IMG/VR virus record: IMGVR_UViG_3300001533_002528
Span: 1-21,675 of that record
Reading direction: 5' to 3' (one strand)
Length of the DNA: 21,675 bases
Origin: a virus
The translations under genes and the position numbers were made by a program. Positions 1,962 to 21,641 of the stretch are shown here, one piece after another (the first letter of the stretch is position 1; every line of letters starts with the position of its first letter). The notes below the pieces were generated by a model that saw only the letters and a list, made by a program, of their open reading frames with translations, was not told where the DNA came from and ran no database searches.

Positions 1962-2150
1962 ATGCAATTGTCTTTCAAAAATTGGTTAGAATTGTTTTGG
2001 CAAGTTCCGCCAAAACAAGACCCGACTAAAGTCGGACAAGGGGCTTTTGCGAGTTATTGTGGCCCTAAGGAAGCAGATCCAAAAAACCCAAACGGACAAC
2101 TTCCACCCAATAATAGAAGAAAATGGCATAAAAAAATGAAGAAAAAATAG
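1962..2150 (+). CDS. Small basic protein with capsid-targeting-like N-terminus, 62 aa
   Basis: The N-terminus MQLSFKNWLEL resembles the amphipathic capsid-targeting segment of T4 internal proteins (MKTYQEFIAEA type), and WLE would fit the xxE cleavage rule of T4-type prohead protease. The rest is rich in Pro, Asn, Lys and Arg and ends KKMKKK, so it could bind DNA. Codons 11-25 coincide with two strong hairpins (1992-2035), as if a palindromic element had been inserted in frame. No ribosome binding site is visible; the start is 5 bases after CTATATAG. The next gene starts one base after its stop. It is short and not recognised, so existence is probable rather than sure. Confidence 0.5.
   Translation: MQLSFKNWLELFWQVPPKQDPTKVGQGAFASYCGPKEADPKNPNGQLPPNNRRKWHKKMKKK
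1992..2035. repeat. Tandem palindromes (REP-like) inside a small gene
   Basis: TTGTTTTGGC (1992-2001) pairs perfectly with GCCAAAACAA (2009-2018) around a 7-base loop. It is followed at once by CCGAC-TAAA-GTCGG (2022-2035). Two adjacent perfect stems inside a coding region suggest an inserted palindromic repeat or a structured mRNA leader. Confidence 0.55.
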
Positions 2151-5670: not shown

Positions 5671-6162
5671 ATGGTTGGCGAGATAGCGCAACAAATTAAA
5701 AAAGAATTAGAAAAAGAAATCGAGGGATTAGTTGGCAAAAATGAAATAGAAGAATTCAAAAAATTTGCATTCAAAGGACACATGATTCAAATGGCCATTG
5801 CCTTTATATTAGGTGCATCTTTTAATTCCGTAGTAAAATCAATTTCTGAAAATATTATTATGCCAATAATAACCTTTGGACTTGATAAAACTGGTGACAA
5901 TTGGCGAGAAATCACCTGGACGCCTTTTGAGGGGTTGACATTAGAACTTGGAAAATTTTGCGGGGCATTTGTTGACTTTTTTTTAATTGCTTTAGTTCTT
6001 TATGTGCTATATGTAAAATTATTGCGACCATTTTGGAAAAGTGCTCCAAAAATAAAATGTATTGAAACTAAAAAATGTACTTTTTGCCAAAGTATTATTC
6101 ATTGGCAATGTGAACGCTGTCCTCATTGTACAACTTGGTTAGGAAAATTGATAGATGGCTAA
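5671..6162 (+). CDS. mscL: MscL-type large-conductance mechanosensitive channel with C-terminal zinc ribbon, 163 aa
   Basis: After a charged helix (residues 1-25), residues 28-67 match the MscL N-terminal signature: EFKKFAFKGHMIQMAIAFIL, then GASFNSVVKS and NIIMPII. TM1 spans about 38-57. A loop follows, then TM2 at about 98-118 (GAFVDFFLIALVLYVLYV). MscL forms a pentameric inner-membrane pore that opens under membrane tension and releases solutes. Instead of the usual C-terminal helix bundle, this protein ends in a zinc ribbon (C136-x2-C139 and C150-x2-C153, with C147 between). AGGAG precedes the ATG. The next gene overlaps it by 8 bases. The family assignment is firm; a role in lysis, osmotic control during infection or DNA entry is inference. 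Confidence 0.88.
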   Translation: MVGEIAQQIKKELEKEIEGLVGKNEIEEFKKFAFKGHMIQMAIAFILGASFNSVVKSISENIIMPIITFGLDKTGDNWREITWTPFEGLTLELGKFCGAFVDFFLIALVLYVLYVKLLRPFWKSAPKIKCIETKKCTFCQSIIHWQCERCPHCTTWLGKLIDG

Positions 6163-9001: not shown

Positions 9002-9343
9002 TTAACAAAAAAACCGATTTTTTACAAGACTAGTTTTCTTCTTCTTCTTCTTCTTCTTCTTCTTCTTTTCTTTATTCCAAAATGCAGGTTCTTCCATGCC
9101 TTCTAACATACTAATTCCAAGACGATCATTTAAAACTCCATTAAGAAGGTGGTTTGCGCTGCGGACGTGTTCTGCCCAACGGACAACACTTATACAAGAT
9201 TCTTCTGAGTCTATATTACCCGTTAGGCAAGTTTCTAATATTTTACAGATTTCATCATCAGAAAGGGCAGCATATCTTTTTTCAGTTTCATTCCATTGAA
9301 GGTCATCATGCGGAATTAAAGAGCTAAGTTGATTAGGGGTCAT
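9002..9343 (-). CDS. Hypothetical protein with polylysine tract, 113 aa
   Basis: Residues 1-90 look like a small helical domain (SDDEICKILETCLTG, VVRWAEHVRSANHLLNGVLNDRLG). This is followed by a run of 11 lysines encoded by AAG repeats and a short tail ending RFFC. I do not recognise the domain. AGGAG lies 8 bases before the ATG, inside the end of the M28 peptidase gene, which it overlaps by 11 bases; the two are probably co-translated. The lysine run could bind DNA, and its length may vary by slippage. Confidence 0.6.
   Translation of the reverse strand: MTPNQLSSLIPHDDLQWNETEKRYAALSDDEICKILETCLTGNIDSEESCISVVRWAEHVRSANHLLNGVLNDRLGISMLEGMEEPAFWNKEKKKKKKKKKKKTSLVKNRFFC
9036..9065. repeat. (TTC)10 trinucleotide repeat coding for lysine
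   Basis: Ten uninterrupted TTC units on the plus strand read as AAG on the minus strand and encode most of the polylysine run of the gene at 9343. Confidence 0.8.
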
Positions 9344-10460
9344 AAATATTACTCCTATATGCTTCTCCTATACCTGTATTTTGGATAGGAAATGGGGTTC
9401 GATGGTCATCATGATCGTATTGCGGTAATATTTCCTCCCCATCCCAGAACCATACTGGTTGTGCAGTATCATTGGCAATTTTATATACCAATTCAAAGCC
9501 AAGGCGAGCAATATCACGAATGCCTTTATACGATCCTAATTGGTCAATTCTTTGTGGGGTGTCTTGTGGTGTGTGATAGGCGGAATGTATCCCTGTAAAA
9601 CACCAAGCAACAGGCACACCTTTATTTTTAAATGATTGATGGTCTGAACCTCCGCCTGTTCCAACCTTAAGAATTGAATTAACAAACGGATATTTATTTT
9701 TTAATTGTTGAACATATCTCTTTATGTTTGGCGAACTTTCAGTATATTTTACTTGTTTTTCTTCAGAAGAATTTAGGTAACCAATCATGTCAAAATTTAA
9801 CATAAAAACATGATTTTTAATATTGGGTTGTTCTTGCGGAAATATTGGATTATTACAATATAATTTGCTACCAATTAATCCCATTTCTTCGCAATTAAAA
9901 GCTATAAAAACCACTGTTTTTTTTGATGGTGGCAACATAGAAAATGCTTGTGCGATTTCAATAATAGCCGAAGTTCCACTGGCGTTGTCATCTGCTCCTG
10001 GACAAATGCCCCTGCGGGATTTTACATGATCCATGTGTGCCCCAACAACTACAATTTCATTTTTATGAGTTGTTCCATCTATCCAACCGATAATATTTGG
10101 TGGGGGATATGGTTTAGAATCTGGCCAAGGGATGTATTGTAATTGTGTTTTACATCCACAATCTTCAAACATTGCTTTAATCCAGTCAGCGGCATATTTA
10201 TTTCCTTGTGTGCCAGGAACTCGTCCTCCCCATTCTTGTGATGCTAACTTATAGACATGTGATCTACATTCCTCAGTTGTTATAGAATTAATTGCATCTT
10301 CATAGGTTTTAGTTGGTGGATTGTCTGGCGTAATTGGTTGCTGATATGGTTGTTGCCAATGTATTTCTTGTGGCTTTTCCCTAGAAATTTCAGCAATTAA
10401 AAACATTCCCCCGACAACAGCGAGGACAATAAGAACATATTCTAATTTGATCTGTTTCAT
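9333..10460 (-). CDS. Membrane-anchored M28 family zinc aminopeptidase, 375 aa
   Basis: Residues 5-24 are a hydrophobic N-terminal anchor, followed by a Pro/Gln-rich linker to about residue 50. The M28 metal site is complete: His142 in GAHMDH, Asp157 in GADDNASG, Glu191-Glu192 in FNCEEMG (catalytic base and ligand), Asp224 in NFDMIGY, and His296 in YHTPQDTP. Family members are co-catalytic two-zinc exopeptidases that release N-terminal amino acids. The anchor places the enzyme on the periplasmic or outer face of the host membrane. No strong ribosome binding site is seen; the ATG lies 43 bases after the stop of a 53-residue gene. It overlaps the next gene by 11 bases. The family is sure; its role for the phage is not known. 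Confidence 0.9.
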   Translation of the reverse strand: MKQIKLEYVLIVLAVVGGMFLIAEISREKPQEIHWQQPYQQPITPDNPPTKTYEDAINSITTEECRSHVYKLASQEWGGRVPGTQGNKYAADWIKAMFEDCGCKTQLQYIPWPDSKPYPPPNIIGWIDGTTHKNEIVVVGAHMDHVKSRRGICPGADDNASGTSAIIEIAQAFSMLPPSKKTVVFIAFNCEEMGLIGSKLYCNNPIFPQEQPNIKNHVFMLNFDMIGYLNSSEEKQVKYTESSPNIKRYVQQLKNKYPFVNSILKVGTGGGSDHQSFKNKGVPVAWCFTGIHSAYHTPQDTPQRIDQLGSYKGIRDIARLGFELVYKIANDTAQPVWFWDGEEILPQYDHDDHRTPFPIQNTGIGEAYRSNIYDP

Positions 10461-13534: not shown

Positions 13535-13590
13535 GAATGAAAAACCTAAATAGTTACAGCAACTAGAAAAAACCCAATGTGAGGAAAATA

Positions 13591-16296
13591 ATGGCTTGGT
13601 GGGATTTTTATAAACTTTGGACATTTACATTTGAAAAAGGTCCATTAGAAAAACAAAAACAAAGACTACGAGGAATGTCGGGAGCAGGAATTGGTATTCC
13701 CGAAGGTATTCCTGACCTGCGCGGAGAAGCATGGGGAGGTGGCTCACAAGGACAAGTTAGACTCCATGCCAGTAATGAATTTGTTGATCTTCAAAGCGTA
13801 GTCAATCGGGTTTCTCGTTATCGAGAATATGAAAGACTTAGAAATGTTGCTGAAATTGAAATGGCAATGACCGTTATCGCCGATGAATCCTGTGTAGCAG
13901 GACATACGAATGTTGCAACACTTTTTGATGGATTTCGCCCTATTAATTGGCTAAAAAAACGTTGGGAAAAAGATAAAAAACCATTTCTAGTTTATTGTTA
14001 TGATTTTGATAAAGAGGATTATAGTTTTGGATGGGCATACGATGTAAGACTGGTGAAACAAGCAAAAACTATTAGAGTAGGACTCGATGACGGAACTTCA
14101 TTGATTGTAACACCAGATCACCGTGCCCTTCTGGCAGATGGTTCATGGAAACACGCTGGGGATTTGAAAGACGGTGATGAACTTATGGCATTTTATCGTC
14201 TGCCGCCTAATAAAATATTCAATGACTTAAGTGTTGGACAATTTCCAAGAATCTATACTCATAAAGATGGTTGGAAACACGAACGACAAATGATAAATGA
14301 TTGGAAACTTGGTTATACAGAAAAATATTATCAAGAATTAAACAAAATATCCAGATTAATTGCCGATGGACTTCCTACTCGTCAAGTAACACAAATAGTA
14401 AATCGTAATTACAGAACTATAGACAGCAGAATTAGAAAAGAAGGATTTACGGTCAATGAATTAAAGTGGTTGGGAAAAAGAAGAAAAGTTCGTAAAGTAT
14501 TAACTGTTATGTCTTATGAACTTCGAAATGTTTATGACTTGTCAGTAAAAGGACATGAAAACTTTTGTACTGATGCGGTTGTTTTACATAATTGCCAAAG
14601 GGGTGACAATAATCATGTCTTGAAAATTCATTGTAATAACAGTGAAGTGGTTGATGAATTAGAATTCGTTTTATTCAACCGAAAAATGATCAATATAGAT
14701 CGCAGAGCATGGAATATGATAAAACGGCTCTGTATTTTTGGAGATGGTTTTTATGAACTTATTACCAATCCAGAAAAACCTTCTGATGGAGTTCTAAAAA
14801 TTCAAGATTTGCCACCCGACAGTGTGTACCGAATTGAAACAACAAAATGTCGATTGGTTGAATTTCAACAATCAAAAGAAGGCCCAGATTGGCACGCTTT
14901 AACTAGGTCAGAAATTACTAAATCTACAGAAGCAGACTTGCAACAATCTACTGCCATACGTTTTTCACCCTATCAATTAGTACATTTTCGCCTTGGTGAT
15001 GATAGACGAACCTTCTATCCTTACGGGCAATCACTAATTGAACCAGCAAGAGGGCCTGCTCATCAATTAAGATTAATGGAAGATGCAATGCTGGTGTACC
15101 GTCTTACACGAGCCCCTGAACGCAGAGTATTTTATATTGATGTTGGTCAATTGCCACCGTTCAAAGCAGAAGCTTTCATAGAAAGATTAAAAGACCAATT
15201 CCGTAAAAAGAAAGTCGCCACAACAAGAGGAGGCGGCACTGGTGCTAATGCCGTCGAAGAACGATGGCACGCTCCCGCACAAGACGAAGATTACTGGTTG
15301 CCAATTCGCCCAAATGCAAATACAAGAATTGAAACACTTCCTGGTGCTTGTTTAACACTTGATACAAAAATTCCTTTATTGGATGGAAACACAAATAGCC
15401 TTAATGAGATAATTGAAAAGTTCGAAAATGGCGAAATTTTATGGGCTTACAGCTGCAACCCCGCTACCGGAGAGATCGTTCCTGGAAATATTACTTGGGC
15501 GGGTGTAACTAGAAAAAATTCAGAAATAGTCCGAATTACTTTGGATAATGGAAAATATGTGGAAGTTACACCAGATCATAAATTTCCAATTTTGGAAAGA
15601 GGATATGTAGAAACTAAGGACTTAAAAGTTGGTGACCGCTTAATTCCCTTCAACAGAAGAAGAGAAAAAATAAAGCCCAGTCATAAAAATACTTATGAAC
15701 AAATTTATGATGTTTCTTGCAAACAATGGAAATTTACTCACAGATTAGTTGCTGATTTTTTCGAAGAAAATAAAAATCAAAATGTAATACACCATGTAGA
15801 TTTTAATCGATACAATAAAAAATTGTACAATCATCGAATTGTTTCTATTGAAATATTAAAAAAGAAAAAAGATGTGGGAACAATTACAATTGATGGGCAA
15901 AATAAACTGCATGGATTCCACACATTTGCCTTAGATTGTGGTGTTTTTACAAAAAATTCAAATTTAGGTGAAATAGATGATGCCCTTTACTTCAGAAACA
16001 AATTATTTTCCGCTTTAAACTTTCCTCGCAATTATTTTAACAATGAAGACCCTGGACAAACAAGAATTACTCTTTCTGCCCAAGACATAAAATTTGCTCG
16101 TATGATAGAACGAATTCAAGGACATTTCGTTGATGGAATAATGGAAATAGCAGAAAGACATTTGGAAATGAGGGGCTTTCCCGAAGAAGAATACGAAGAC
16201 CTTAAGATAGAAATGACACCACCCTCCGCTTGGAAGGAATTGAGCGAAGCAGAAGTCATAAATCAACGAATTCAATGGATTACAGGATTGAATTGA
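13591..16296 (+). CDS. Portal protein (T4 gp20-like) carrying two inteins, 901 aa precursor
   Basis: The portal is the dodecameric ring through which DNA enters the head. The precursor consists of extein 1 (1-100), intein 1 (101-334), extein 2 (335-586), intein 2 (587-789) and extein 3 (790-901). Joined exteins make 464 residues. T4 gp20-like signatures are EDYWLPIRPNANTRIETLPG just before intein 2 and NLGEIDDALYFRNKLFSALN just after it, plus IFGDGFYEL in extein 2. ATG 13591 is chosen because GAGG lies 6 bases upstream; an in-frame GTG at 13579 would overlap that site. The frame ends abruptly after NQRIQWITGLN, while the +1 frame continues (see 16295-16660), so the true C-terminus is probably longer. 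The portal identity is firm. Confidence 0.92.
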   Translation: MAWWDFYKLWTFTFEKGPLEKQKQRLRGMSGAGIGIPEGIPDLRGEAWGGGSQGQVRLHASNEFVDLQSVVNRVSRYREYERLRNVAEIEMAMTVIADESCVAGHTNVATLFDGFRPINWLKKRWEKDKKPFLVYCYDFDKEDYSFGWAYDVRLVKQAKTIRVGLDDGTSLIVTPDHRALLADGSWKHAGDLKDGDELMAFYRLPPNKIFNDLSVGQFPRIYTHKDGWKHERQMINDWKLGYTEKYYQELNKISRLIADGLPTRQVTQIVNRNYRTIDSRIRKEGFTVNELKWLGKRRKVRKVLTVMSYELRNVYDLSVKGHENFCTDAVVLHNCQRGDNNHVLKIHCNNSEVVDELEFVLFNRKMINIDRRAWNMIKRLCIFGDGFYELITNPEKPSDGVLKIQDLPPDSVYRIETTKCRLVEFQQSKEGPDWHALTRSEITKSTEADLQQSTAIRFSPYQLVHFRLGDDRRTFYPYGQSLIEPARGPAHQLRLMEDAMLVYRLTRAPERRVFYIDVGQLPPFKAEAFIERLKDQFRKKKVATTRGGGTGANAVEERWHAPAQDEDYWLPIRPNANTRIETLPGACLTLDTKIPLLDGNTNSLNEIIEKFENGEILWAYSCNPATGEIVPGNITWAGVTRKNSEIVRITLDNGKYVEVTPDHKFPILERGYVETKDLKVGDRLIPFNRRREKIKPSHKNTYEQIYDVSCKQWKFTHRLVADFFEENKNQNVIHHVDFNRYNKKLYNHRIVSIEILKKKKDVGTITIDGQNKLHGFHTFALDCGVFTKNSNLGEIDDALYFRNKLFSALNFPRNYFNNEDPGQTRITLSAQDIKFARMIERIQGHFVDGIMEIAERHLEMRGFPEEEYEDLKIEMTPPSAWKELSEAEVINQRIQWITGLN
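13891..14592 (+). mobile_element. Intein 1 in the portal, 234 aa
   Basis: The intein begins at Cys101 of the precursor (CVAGHTNVATLFDG, block A). It has block B TPDH at 174-177 followed by ALLADGSWKHAGDLKDGDEL, and block F near NVYDLSVKGHENF. It ends in VLHN followed by Cys335 as the +1 residue. All residues needed for splicing are present (Cys1, TxxH, HN, Cys+1). There is no LAGLIDADG or HNH endonuclease. In its place is a small helix-turn-helix-like part (ISRLIADGLPTRQVTQIV followed by NYRTIDSRIRKEG), perhaps a leftover DNA-binding unit. Excision rejoins IADES to CQRGDNN. Confidence 0.9.
15349..15957 (+). mobile_element. Intein 2 in the portal, 203 aa
   Basis: The intein begins at Cys587 (CLTLDTKIPLLDG, block A) and has block B TPDH at 660-663 with VETKDLKVGDRL after it. 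Block F is GFHTFALDCGVF, and it ends TKN before Ser790. The penultimate residue is Lys instead of the usual His, which occurs in some active inteins. Between blocks B and F lies a piece that looks like an HNH endonuclease remnant (HRLVADFF, then NVIHHVDFNRYNKKLYNH), apparently cut short after the second half of the motif. Excision joins IETLPGA to SNLGEID, a highly conserved stretch of gp20-like portals. Confidence 0.9.
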
Positions 16297-16660
16297 GGCT
16301 CGTAATAAGATTCAAAAACTCGAAGAACTTAAATTGCAAATTATTGGCCAAAACCCACAACTTCTTGGCGTGGGAGTGCCCGGACAACCTACAGGGGAAG
16401 AGGAAATGGGCGCTGAACCAGGAGGTCCAAGCCCAGAATTAGGAAATGAACAACCGCCTGGTGGAGAGCAATTAGGGGAACAACCGCTTGGTGGAGAAAT
16501 CCCAGGTGGTAGCGAACAAGGGAGACAGCCGCCCGCAACAGGCAAAACAACTCCTTTATCTGAACCCAGTAGAGAAGATGTAAAACGATATGATCTCGAT
16601 ATTGAAGATTATAGTCGTGAAGCAGATGCTGAAGATATTGATTTTAGTATGGAAATTTGA
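16295..16660 (+). CDS. Portal C-terminal extension in the +1 frame, 121 aa
   Basis: Right at the portal stop (AAT TGA), the +1 frame is open and reads EARNKIQKLEELKLQIIGQN, then a Gly/Pro/Glu-rich tail (about residues 30-80) and an acidic end, DIEDYSREADAEDIDFSMEI. The frame has no good start: TTG 16334 lacks a ribosome binding site and the first ATG (16403) lies inside the low-complexity tail. From memory, many gp20-like portals end in a similar helix followed by a Pro/Gly/Glu-rich tail. So this is most likely the end of the portal, joined by a +1 frameshift at the UGA or separated by an indel in this sequence. Confidence 0.65.
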   Translation, partial: EARNKIQKLEELKLQIIGQNPQLLGVGVPGQPTGEEEMGAEPGGPSPELGNEQPPGGEQLGEQPLGGEIPGGSEQGRQPPATGKTTPLSEPSREDVKRYDLDIEDYSREADAEDIDFSMEI

Positions 16661-16673
16661 TGAATATTAAATT

Positions 16674-17138
16674 ATGAGCTTTAAAAAGTGGTATGAAAAT
16701 AAAAAAGTTCAATGGCCTTGTGAATGGCCCAACCGTCAGGGGACAGGTGATGATCCCCATGCGGGAGACACACCTCCTGAAATTCTCCCCGATGGACATT
16801 ACCTCCTTTATCATGGCACCAATATGGTAAATGCCAAAAAAATACTTGAACAAAGAAAAATTACGAAAGATGATATGGGATATGTGGGAATATGCACAAC
16901 CCCTAGTGCCGCAGGAACTTATGCCTCTATGAAGTCAAGCCAAAACAGAGGACTGCCAGAAGATAATCCATCGGTAGTATTACGATTGATTGTGGATAAA
17001 GATTGGTTTCTTAAACAAGAAATAAGTCGTGAATGTGGCGGTAGAGGAAGAGATCAATGGCTCATTCACTCAGAAGAAATGCCACCTGAAGCAATAAGGG
17101 CAATAAGTATTTACAGCATTTGGGGAGAAAGACAGTAA
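16674..17138 (+). CDS. Putative ADP-ribosyltransferase with capsid-targeting-like N-terminus, 154 aa
   Basis: The first residues, MSFKKWYEN, match the SFKxW start of two other genes in the window. From residue 42 the protein looks like an H-Y-E class ADP-ribosyltransferase fold: YLLYHGTNMVNAKKILEQ (His47-Gly-Thr, then helix), GYVGICTTPSAAGTYA (Tyr70 or Tyr83), the strand SVVLRLIVD, and WLIHSEEMPPEAIRAI near the end (Glu134/Glu135 as candidate catalytic Glu, and PPEAI as in many members). These enzymes move ADP-ribose from NAD to a protein or nucleic acid. Placement after the portal plus the N-terminus suggest packaging in the head and injection, as for T4 Alt. No ribosome binding site is visible. 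Fold is moderately sure; activity and target are inference. Confidence 0.62.
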   Translation: MSFKKWYENKKVQWPCEWPNRQGTGDDPHAGDTPPEILPDGHYLLYHGTNMVNAKKILEQRKITKDDMGYVGICTTPSAAGTYASMKSSQNRGLPEDNPSVVLRLIVDKDWFLKQEISRECGGRGRDQWLIHSEEMPPEAIRAISIYSIWGERQ

Positions 17139-19414: not shown

Positions 19415-19726
19415 TTATTCCTCTTCTATGCTGGTATCTGCCAATGAAGGAACAATAACTTCTCCATTTCCCGCCCTTCTTTCTGATTGTCCAAGGCGGT
19501 CGGCCTTAGTAATTTCTGGAGATTTGTCTAATTTTTCAAATTGTTCTTTAATATCTGGGTCTTTATTGGCAAGTTGTCCAAAGAAGTCTTTTGTTTCGGG
19601 TTCGTAACGATCCCATGCCATTTTAATAATTCTTTTTAGGGTTTCATCATGCTCATCAGGGCTTGCAGATGGATCGCCAATATTATCAGATTCTCTTAAT
19701 TTCAAATATTTTTTAAATGATTTCAT
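19415..19726 (-). CDS. Small acidic protein with capsid-targeting-like N-terminus, 103 aa
   Basis: It begins MKSFKKYLKLRESDN, very close in pattern to the T4 capsid-targeting sequence (MK-x-aromatic-x-x-aromatic/Ile-x-x-E), with LRE as a fitting cleavage site. The remainder is charged and helical (RIIKMAWDRYEPETKDFFGQ), ending in a disordered acidic tail. No enzyme motif is seen. It could be an internal head protein or a scaffold-core part. It lies on the minus strand between two plus-strand genes; its stop abuts the upstream gene's stop. An AATATAGTA-like element lies 33 bases before its ATG. Confidence 0.6.
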   Translation of the reverse strand: MKSFKKYLKLRESDNIGDPSASPDEHDETLKRIIKMAWDRYEPETKDFFGQLANKDPDIKEQFEKLDKSPEITKADRLGQSERRAGNGEVIVPSLADTSIEEE

Positions 19727-19874
19727 TGATAAACTCTGTGGTTTTTGTCGTCTGCAGCATACTATATTAGTAGCAATTCTCTGTATATGTAGGATTGCTT
19801 TGTGAAGTTTTTATCAATTAAAACTATATATACACCAATTAGGTGTCAATTAAGCCTGTAGTATAGGAGTGATC
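19727..19874. promoter_or_regulatory. Divergent intergenic region, 148 bases
   Basis: The region holds no gene. It contains an AATATAGTAT element for the minus strand (19759-19768), ACTATATATAC at 19826-19836 and TATAGGAG at 19862-19869 on the plus strand, where AGGAG serves as ribosome binding site. AATTAGGTGTCAATTAAG may be an operator. The promoter assignment is by position only. Confidence 0.35.
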
Positions 19875-21641
19875 ATGAAGAGAAGACTCATTAACTTCAA
19901 TGTTTTTGAACAAATCGAGAGAGGCTCACTTACTAAGGCCCAAGAAGAACTAGTAGAAGCAGCACCGGTTCTAGCTAAGGCTCTGCAAGCAGAAAACTTG
20001 AGACTCCGTTGCTACGGGCCTGAGAATGTGTTGTATGAATCGACAGACGGACACTTTGTAAGTGCCAATTATCAAATGAAAAACGGTTATATTGATTTTG
20101 ATAATGTCGAAGAACTAGTTATCAACGAGGAAACAGAGCGAACAAAGCAAAGAGAAGTTGTTTCTGGAATGCTTGACGCTCTTCTCGAAGAAAAAACTAC
20201 AGATCGGGCCGACACTCTCTTTAAAGAATTTTTATTTCTCCCGCGTACGCGACGCATTTTCTCAGAATCTAAGGTTTCGAGAAAGAAGAAAGAAAAATTT
20301 GAGCAGTGTAAACCTTCCAGAAGGCGAATTAATGAATCCAAAGTACAACCCAGTAAAATTCTTCAAGTTTCTAACCGTGAGCGGATGAAGAAAACATTGA
20401 GTGAATGGGCTGTGTTGGTAGAAAATGTCGTGGACTATCTTAATTACAAAGAATATGGTCCATCTTTGGACATTACAACTACTAAAAAGGATCAAAAAGG
20501 CAATATTATAGGTGCCCATGTTCCAACTCTTAAAGTTCGTAATGAAGCCAAGTTACTCGCATTTGACTGGAAAACTCTTAATACCGATGTTGTAGTTAAA
20601 AGGGCTAGTGGTAAGACGGTCTCAGAAGATGTGAATTTCTGCAGAGCAATAGCAGAACTCAAACGACACAACAACCTGTCCGAAGACAATGCTCTCGAAG
20701 AAGCTCTTGAGAACATTGTTAGTAAGTGGCCAAATGTTCTTTATCTTACACAGAATGAACTGGCCGAACATATCAAGGTGGCCCTTGAAACTGCTGGTGC
20801 CACAAATTGGGATGATCAAACTTGTGAATTTATGGCCGAAGGCATCCTGCGTACAGCCTATAAGACTTACGTAGATCGTACAGCTAAGATTATGAAACTT
20901 GCTGGTGCCCCCGTAAACGAAAAGTCTGAAGATCCTTATCTTGAATTCAAAGATGTTGTTGATAAATTTTATGTTTCTTTAGATGAAAATAATCGAGTGG
21001 AAATGCAGGTCTATGTAGATCTCTATGAAGCCATTCGTCATATCCATGAATTAGCAGTAGAAGAACAAAACAATGTTGTTCGTTCGGAATCTGCCAGTTA
21101 CCTGGAATCCTTGTTGCCGATTATTCAGCAAGAAGCAGAACCCAAGCTAGAAGTGGCCGAAGATGCCGCTGAATGGTTATGGACAATCGTTGAATCCAAC
21201 TTGGAAACCCAAAATTGGAATGTAAGTAATACACCACATATCACCTTAAGTGGCGATCATCCCGCAATGGCCGAAAAAGCCAGAAAGGGTTATACACCTG
21301 CCTCTGATTCATCTGGAAATTGGGGCGATGTAGCGCCTGCTAGTGATGGCGCAAGCTATAAGGGTGGTGAAGCAGACACGATGAGAAATCGTGCTTGGGG
21401 TAATGAAGCCGGTGGCGGAAATACCTTTCCATCTTTAAGGAACCCTTATGTTCCTTCACCGTTCGGTGATTACAAAATCAAAGGTGAGAAGCATGTAGAT
21501 GCTGATAGTGGTCAACTTGCTCACTGGGGTGGACAAGATACTTGGCCCGCGCTTCAAAATCCATACGTCCCACAGGCTGAAACTCCTCAGACTGACAAAA
21601 TGAATAAAGGACGAGAACCAGATTTAGTTGTAGACCAATAA
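19875..21641 (+). CDS. Large hypothetical virion-type protein, 588 aa
   Basis: I do not recognise a named family. The start MKRRLINFNVFEQIERG is followed by a helical, charged region. Basic stretches lie around residues 120-165 (SRKKKEKFEQ, PSRRRINES). A long helical middle (about 180-470) carries many Glu/Asp residues. The C-terminal tail, rich in Gly, Pro, Trp and Asn, has two copies of an (S/A)L(R/Q)NPYVP motif (NPYVP at about 523 and 562). ATG 19875 is chosen because AGGAG lies 5 bases upstream; GTG 19869 would overlap that site. Its place after the portal module, just before another gene, suggests a head-assembly or structural protein. Confidence 0.7.
   Translation: MKRRLINFNVFEQIERGSLTKAQEELVEAAPVLAKALQAENLRLRCYGPENVLYESTDGHFVSANYQMKNGYIDFDNVEELVINEETERTKQREVVSGMLDALLEEKTTDRADTLFKEFLFLPRTRRIFSESKVSRKKKEKFEQCKPSRRRINESKVQPSKILQVSNRERMKKTLSEWAVLVENVVDYLNYKEYGPSLDITTTKKDQKGNIIGAHVPTLKVRNEAKLLAFDWKTLNTDVVVKRASGKTVSEDVNFCRAIAELKRHNNLSEDNALEEALENIVSKWPNVLYLTQNELAEHIKVALETAGATNWDDQTCEFMAEGILRTAYKTYVDRTAKIMKLAGAPVNEKSEDPYLEFKDVVDKFYVSLDENNRVEMQVYVDLYEAIRHIHELAVEEQNNVVRSESASYLESLLPIIQQEAEPKLEVAEDAAEWLWTIVESNLETQNWNVSNTPHITLSGDHPAMAEKARKGYTPASDSSGNWGDVAPASDGASYKGGEADTMRNRAWGNEAGGGNTFPSLRNPYVPSPFGDYKIKGEKHVDADSGQLAHWGGQDTWPALQNPYVPQAETPQTDKMNKGREPDLVVDQ

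What the first reader, a model, noticed from the sequence alone, without database searches (positions are those of the whole stretch)
16674..17138. Putative head-packaged ADP-ribosyltransferase effector
A 154-residue protein right after the portal joins a capsid-targeting-like N-terminus (MSFKKWYE) to an ART-like domain (LYHGT, GYVGICTTP, SEEMPPEAI). T4 packages the unrelated-looking ART Alt in its head and injects it to modify host RNA polymerase. This could be a distinct, much smaller injected ART of the H-Y-E type.
Basis: inference. Interest (0 to 1): 0.82.

Follow-up and report, generated by a model that had tools for sequence, protein, structure and literature searches.

The report
Tagged phage ADP-ribosyltransferase-fold protein
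Next to its head-building genes, a T4-like phage carries a small protein with an ADP-ribosyltransferase fold and a front-end tag like the one T4 uses to load proteins into its head, so it is probably shipped with the DNA and injected into the host.

Summary
The ORF is real: 154 aa, strong purifying selection, and two homologues (80% and 61% identity) in the same place behind the portal of related uncultivated phages. An ART fold is well supported. An AlphaFold2 model (pLDDT 68, pTM 0.66) retrieves ARTs as its best matches (Tpt1/KptA, RhsP2, DarT, PARP), and the family profile matches the KptA NAD lobe (HHalign 81%; best of 100 shuffles 11%). It is not an H-Y-E enzyme.

The capsid-targeting idea gains support. 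The motif M-x(1-3)-[FYL]xx[WFY][aliphatic/aromatic]..E is enriched about 6-fold at protein starts in this phage clade. It recovers T4 IPII and IPIII, and it is a detachable prefix on Acb1-like 2H enzymes between terminase and portal. The genome has a gp21-type protease and gp23-type capsid protein. Virion location, injection, target and activity are untested; Q128 and the loss of HGT in one homologue leave a non-catalytic protein possible. Head-packaged phage ARTs are a published kind; this is a new small variant with an unusual active site.

The parts
16674..17138 (+). 154-aa ART-fold protein gene
   Evidence: ORF; homologues in L002 and L003; purifying selection; AlphaFold2 model and fold searches
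16674..16697 (+). codons 1-8, capsid-targeting-like N-terminus MSFKKWYE (homologues MSFNKWFE, MSLKLWLE)
   Evidence: motif enriched at protein starts in the clade and matching T4 IPII/IPIII
16794..17123 (+). ART domain, residues 41-150
   Evidence: confident part of the model from residue 41 on apart from two short loops; region aligned to ARTs
16812..16814 (+). H47 codon (HGT motif; NAD-binding His of ARTs)
   Evidence: invariant in A1; aligns with KptA HGT
16893..16895 (+). C74 codon, position of the Tyr of H-Y-E ARTs and the second His of KptA
   Evidence: invariant; hand alignment of GICTT with KptA VHLS
17055..17057 (+). Q128 codon, position of the catalytic Glu
   Evidence: invariant; start of the strand 128-131 in the model; aligns with V of KptA NGVWL
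13579..16296 (+). T4-like portal (gp20) with two inteins
   Evidence: Pfam Portal_T4 1.1e-64, Intein_splicing 3.7e-24
16334..16660 (+). C-terminal tail of the portal, out of frame here because of a gap of about 74 nt
   Evidence: in frame with the portal in L002/L003
10730..12625 (+). large terminase subunit
   Evidence: Terminase_6N/6C, phrog_2 2.4e-38
19415..19726 (-). small acidic protein with the same kind of N-terminus (MKSFKKYLKLRE), conserved in relatives at this place
19869..21641 (+). conserved protein between portal and prohead protease, probable prohead core protein
   Evidence: conserved in L003-L009, L025, L029 and L031; position only

Best explanation
The gene encodes a small single-domain ART-fold effector that rides inside the phage head. 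Steps: (1) it is expressed with the head genes directly behind the portal [position shown, timing inferred]; (2) its first 8-10 residues act as a capsid-targeting sequence of the T4 IPIII type that draws it into the prohead core [motif shown, function inferred]; (3) the gp21-type protease may trim the tag [protease shown, cleavage inferred]; (4) it enters the host with the DNA [inferred by analogy with T4 Alt and IPI-III]; (5) its ART domain binds NAD+ through H47 of the HGT motif and, with a non-canonical H-C-Q site, modifies a host molecule or removes an NAD-derived defence signal early in infection [fold predicted, chemistry and target inferred]. My estimates: ART fold about 0.93; packaged about 0.6; enzymatically active about 0.5. 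The confidence given covers packaging plus some NAD-dependent activity.
For: Fold: Foldseek on the model gives 14 Tpt1/KptA chains on top (probability about 1.0, E 1e-3 to 1e-2), then DUF952, DarT, RhsP2 and PARP10 among the next ranks. VIA-align gives RhsP2 Z 8.4 over 102 residues and Tpt1 Z 8.1, and all 50 rows shown are ART-fold proteins. Viral predicted structures include a phage DarT, a phage KptA and phage G proteins. HHalign against the KptA NAD lobe gives 81%, E 1.2e-5, score 35.3; best of 100 column shuffles 22.9, ten other segments of this phage's proteins at most 13.8, reversed KptA 12.7. Tag: start-site motif 19/628 vs internal 8/1691 in G003 (p 3e-6) and 16/593 vs 8/1779 in the other relatives (p 1.8e-5); T4 IPII and IPIII match (MKTYQEFIAEA); none in 50 kb of PaBG, 1/267 in distant relatives. 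G003 has MKTFLQWLE, MKTFRQWLQE, MKTFIAWAEE and MKTFQQYIE on different small proteins. In T4 the targeting residues of the IPIII tag are 4 and 7, the two aromatics (PMC9026906). Cargo logic: Acb1/2H enzymes between terminase and portal carry such a prefix in L028, L011, L010 and L034, and lack it in L032 and L031. Peptidase_S77 1.1e-25 and Gp23 3.2e-68 lie just downstream. Selection: pN 0.11 vs pS 0.79. Precedent: about 44% of phage ARTs lie in contexts suggesting head packaging (PMC9503650).
Against: No virion data. The tag lacks the T4 [LI]xE cleavage site in the window copy (W-Y-E). The motif also occurs on proteins with no expected head role (a DnaG-like primase and an HTH protein), so a single match is weak evidence. 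The catalytic Glu is Gln. L003 reads HSA instead of HGT and lacks 13 residues. Sequence searches alone give nothing significant (Pfam DarT E 0.23). The model rests on three sequences, and the best VIA Z of about 8 is at the level the tool calls common.
Confidence: 0.4

Rival explanations
1. Packaged or not, the protein is a catalytically dead ART fold that binds NAD, ADP-ribose or nucleic acid, for instance to sequester a defence signal or to serve as an internal head protein.
For: C74 and Q128 in place of Tyr and Glu in all three members. L003 has lost HGT and 13 residues while still under selection.
Against: HGT kept in two of three members and H47 in all. Q at the Glu position is an accepted state of a recognised active-site clade, H-Y-[EDQ] (PMC9503650). 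KptA enzymes lack the Glu and are active.
Confidence: 0.27
2. An active ART that is not packaged but made late inside the cell, acting on assembly, superinfection or host functions; the N-terminus is only an amphipathic helix.
For: The motif is not fully specific. The spacing and missing [LI]xE site differ from T4.
Against: Clade-wide start-site enrichment with T4 internal proteins as positive controls. Position in the head cluster. Tag present or absent on otherwise alignable 2H enzymes.
Confidence: 0.22
3. A tRNA 2'-phosphotransferase (KptA/Tpt1) for RNA repair.
For: Best Foldseek matches and best profile match are Tpt1/KptA.
Against: No RNA lobe: only 40 residues precede the NAD lobe. The Arg-His-Arg-Arg tetrad and Arg cage (PMC6333775) have no counterparts, and the second KptA His aligns with C74. 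Pfam PTS_2-RNA does not match.
Confidence: 0.04
4. Not an ART: the fold match is a chance result of a shallow alignment.
For: Model from three sequences with mean pLDDT 68; no significant sequence hit.
Against: Two routes (structure and profile-profile) agree on the same family with clean controls.
Confidence: 0.05

Closest known systems
Phage T4 Alt (head-packaged, injected ADP-ribosyltransferase)
   Same: ART superfamily; predicted to be packaged through a short N-terminal propeptide in a phage with gp20/gp21/gp23-type head genes
   Different: Alt is of the R-S-E clade (PMC9503650) and much larger (from memory, about 680 aa); this one is 154 aa and H-C-Q; different genome place
T4 internal proteins IPII/IPIII with capsid targeting sequence MKTYQEFIAE
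   Same: N-terminus with two aromatics three residues apart; both T4 proteins are recovered by the same motif
   Different: Glu closer to the second aromatic; no [LI]xE cleavage site in the window copy; cargo is an enzyme-fold domain
KptA/Tpt1 NAD lobe (H-H-h ART clade)
   Same: Best fold and profile match; HGT motif; WL[IT] strand followed by a V/MP motif
   Different: No RNA lobe, no Arg cage, second His replaced by Cys, V replaced by Q at the Glu position
DarT, RhsP2 and PARP-type ARTs (H-Y-E and R-Y-E)
   Same: Fold (VIA Z 8.4 for RhsP2; weak Pfam DarT match E 0.23)
   Different: No Tyr and no Glu at the catalytic positions
Phage ARTs encoded next to terminase/portal genes (PMC9503650)
   Same: Genomic context and proposed early, injected action
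   Different: Many of those are fused to MuF or lie in polyvalent proteins; here a stand-alone tagged domain without detectable relatives beyond two contigs

Membership tests
ART superfamily | split-sheet ART core | tested here: met
   predicted model; Foldseek top ranks and all 50 VIA rows shown are ARTs
ART superfamily | sequence relation to a known ART family | tested here: met
   HHalign to KptA NAD lobe 81%, controls at most 11%; single-sequence HMM searches not significant
H-Y-E ART | His in the first motif | tested here: met
   H47 invariant
H-Y-E ART | Tyr in the second motif | tested here: not met
   C74 at the aligned place; Y70 not conserved
H-Y-E ART | catalytic Glu at the start of the late strand | tested here: not met
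   Q128 invariant at the start of strand 128-131; Q is accepted in the clade named H-Y-[EDQ]
KptA/Tpt1 | N-terminal RNA lobe and Arg-His-Arg-Arg tetrad | tested here: not met
   40-residue N-terminus; no equivalent Arg in alignment; no Pfam PTS_2-RNA match
T4-type capsid-targeted internal protein | N-terminal motif with two aromatics three apart | tested here: met
   MSFKKWYE, MSFNKWFE; L in the first place in L003 (MSLKLWLE); clade enrichment
T4-type capsid-targeted internal protein | [LI]xE cleavage site for gp21-type protease | tested here: not met
   W-Y-E in the window copy; the specificity of this clade's protease is unknown
T4-type capsid-targeted internal protein | present in virion and injected | not testable with these tools
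   needs virion proteomics
ADP-ribosyltransferase enzyme | NAD-dependent transfer | not testable with these tools
   needs purified protein

The most novel reading that the evidence does not exclude
A large clade of uncultivated T4-like jumbo phages uses one short, detachable N-terminal tag to load many unrelated counter-defence and takeover enzymes into the head, and this ART with an H-C-Q site is one of them, carrying out a non-standard NAD-dependent reaction. The tag could then be used to list injected effectors from sequence alone.
Probability: 0.25. Interest if true: 0.72.

Novelty: new variant of a known kind. Interest (0 to 1): 0.5.

Why it matters
Injected phage proteins act before any phage gene is expressed, and few are known outside T4 and its close relatives. 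If the tag works as proposed, it gives a sequence handle for finding such effectors in uncultivated jumbo phages. The ART itself would be an unusually small head-packaged ART with an active site outside the standard triads, which bears on how far the catalytic Glu is needed.

Tried and rejected
Close relatives were sought in viral contigs, GTDB genome contigs, GenBank phages (best hit E 0.8 spans two unrelated ORFs of a Klebsiella phage, taken as chance), plasmids and 17 related phage records (the one weak hit lies antisense to a RecA-like ORF). None was found beyond the two synteny-conserved homologues. PDB sequence searches gave only chance hits. NCBIfam, PHROGs and PADLOC gave no ART match. 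A single-sequence fold was poor (pLDDT 38) and was replaced by the three-sequence model.

Full report
What is there. The ORF at 16674-17138 (+) is 154 codons long and reads as quoted. It follows a T4-like portal gene (Portal_T4 1.1e-64), whose C-terminal tail is displaced into another frame here (16334-16660). The record is a 29,976-base virus fragment. Upstream is a large terminase. Downstream, beyond the window end, are a gp21-type protease (Peptidase_S77 1.1e-25), a probable scaffold and a gp23-type capsid protein (3.2e-68).

Relatives. A terminase search brought 33 loci with 48-85% identical terminases, some from records of 340-530 kb. Two of them, L002 and L003, encode homologues of the protein right behind the portal tail. 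The others that reach this far have different genes there, so the place is a variable slot. No further homologues were found in viral contigs, genome contigs, phages or plasmids. Selection is purifying: pN 0.11 against pS 0.79 with L002, dN/dS about 0.2 with L003.

Fold. AlphaFold2 on the three-sequence alignment gave mean pLDDT 67.6 and pTM 0.66, with the core from residue 41 mostly confident. Foldseek put 14 Tpt1/KptA chains first with probability near 1.0; DUF952, DarT, RhsP2 and PARP10 follow, mixed with unrelated chains at E above 0.5. VIA-align listed RhsP2 at Z 8.4 (102 residues, 2.7 A) and Tpt1 at 8.1; every one of the 50 rows is an ART-fold protein (the reading of each row as ART rests on my knowledge of these families). 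Predicted viral structures gave phage ARTs, a phage DarT and a phage KptA. HHalign of the family against the KptA NAD lobe gave 81% probability and score 35.3. The best of 100 column shuffles reached 22.9, ten other segments of this phage's proteins at most 13.8 and the reversed KptA 12.7. Single-sequence profile searches were not significant (Pfam DarT E 0.23), so the claim rests on structure and profile-profile comparison together.

Active site. In Tpt1 and diphtheria toxin the HGT motif binds the adenosine 2'-OH of NAD (PMC6333775). HGT is present in the window and L002 proteins; L003 has HSA. KptA VHLS aligns with GICTT (second His to C74) and KptA NGVWL with RDQWL (V to Q128). The Glu of typical ARTs sits at the start of the late strand (PMC12340436); in the model that strand starts at Q128. 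So the invariant triad is H47-C74-Q128. These placements come from sequence alignment and secondary structure; I could not measure distances in the model, and the automatic HHalign alignment shifts by a few residues around C74.

N-terminal tag. T4 internal proteins enter the head through a 10-residue capsid targeting sequence, with residues 4 and 7 important for targeting and 8 and 10 for processing (PMC9026906). A motif with two aromatics (or Leu and an aromatic) three apart, an aliphatic or aromatic residue and a nearby Glu was counted at possible starts and at internal Met. In a 320-kb stretch of a related phage (G003) it was 19/628 against 8/1691 (p 3e-6); in the other relatives 16/593 against 8/1779 (p 1.8e-5). 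T4 IPII and IPIII match; PaBG, E. coli and more distant relatives show no excess. I chose the motif after seeing some of the tagged proteins of the clade, so the p-values are somewhat optimistic; G003 beyond the head cluster is the fairer test (a narrower version gave 18 hits against 1.5 expected). Several G003 proteins are almost T4-like: MKTFLQWLE, MKTFRQWLQE, MKTFIAWAEE, MKTFQQYIE. Some matches are on proteins with no expected head role (a DnaG-like primase, an HTH protein), so one match alone is weak.

Tagged cargo. Between terminase and portal many relatives carry a 2H phosphoesterase of the anti-CBASS Acb1 kind (Acb1 8.6e-10 and 3.2e-9 for the two tested). It has such a prefix in L028-L030, L011, L010 and L034 and starts directly at the domain in L032 and L031. 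A prefix that comes and goes on otherwise alignable enzymes is what a targeting tag would look like. It also suggests that this head cluster collects counter-defence enzymes.

How it most likely works. The protein is made with the head proteins, drawn into the prohead by its N-terminus, perhaps trimmed by the gp21-type protease, and enters the host with the DNA, where the ART domain uses or binds NAD+. Shown: gene, conservation, motif enrichment, gene context, invariant residues. Predicted: the fold. Inferred: packaging, cleavage, injection, activity and target. The main rivals are a non-catalytic ART fold and an unpackaged ART.

Novelty. Phage ARTs near terminase and portal genes, proposed to be head-packaged, are described (about 44% of phage ARTs, PMC9503650). 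This is a small, stand-alone, tagged member with an unusual site and no known relatives beyond two contigs: a new variant of a known kind. The more interesting lead is the clade-wide tag.

Noticed in passing
L028:3885-4430 (+), L011:11005-11595 (+), L010:6480-7031 (+), L034:10993-11559 (+): Acb1-like 2H phosphoesterases between terminase and portal carry capsid-targeting-like prefixes; the same family in L032:11244-11780 and L031:3278-3844 starts directly at the domain.
   Followed up: partly
L089-L104 (G003, 320 kb of a 343-kb phage): About 20 mostly unrelated proteins begin with MKTFxxWLxE-like sequences very close to the T4 IPIII tag; one is a radical SAM protein (L095:2711-4357).
   Followed up: partly
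window 16260-16334: A gap of about 74 nt relative to L002/L003 puts the C-terminal tail of the portal out of frame; either an assembly error or a real deletion.
   Followed up: partly
window 13579-16296: The portal gene holds two inteins; the first (about residues 105-340) is shared with relatives, the second (about 592-794) is missing from L002-L004.
   Followed up: no
window 5671-6162 (+): Phage-encoded homologue of the mechanosensitive channel MscL (Pfam 9.6e-22).
   Followed up: no
window 9333-10460 (-): M28 family peptidase with an N-terminal hydrophobic segment in the phage fragment (Pfam 1.8e-40).
   Followed up: no
window 1962-2150 (+) and L004:5462-5695 (+): Small basic proteins with tag-like starts (MQLSFKNWLE, MKFTEWLS), reminiscent of the basic internal proteins of T4.
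   Followed up: no
L002:10691-11140 (+): Directly behind the ART gene of L002 lies another gene with a tag-like start (MKFKVWLES) and no family match.
   Followed up: no
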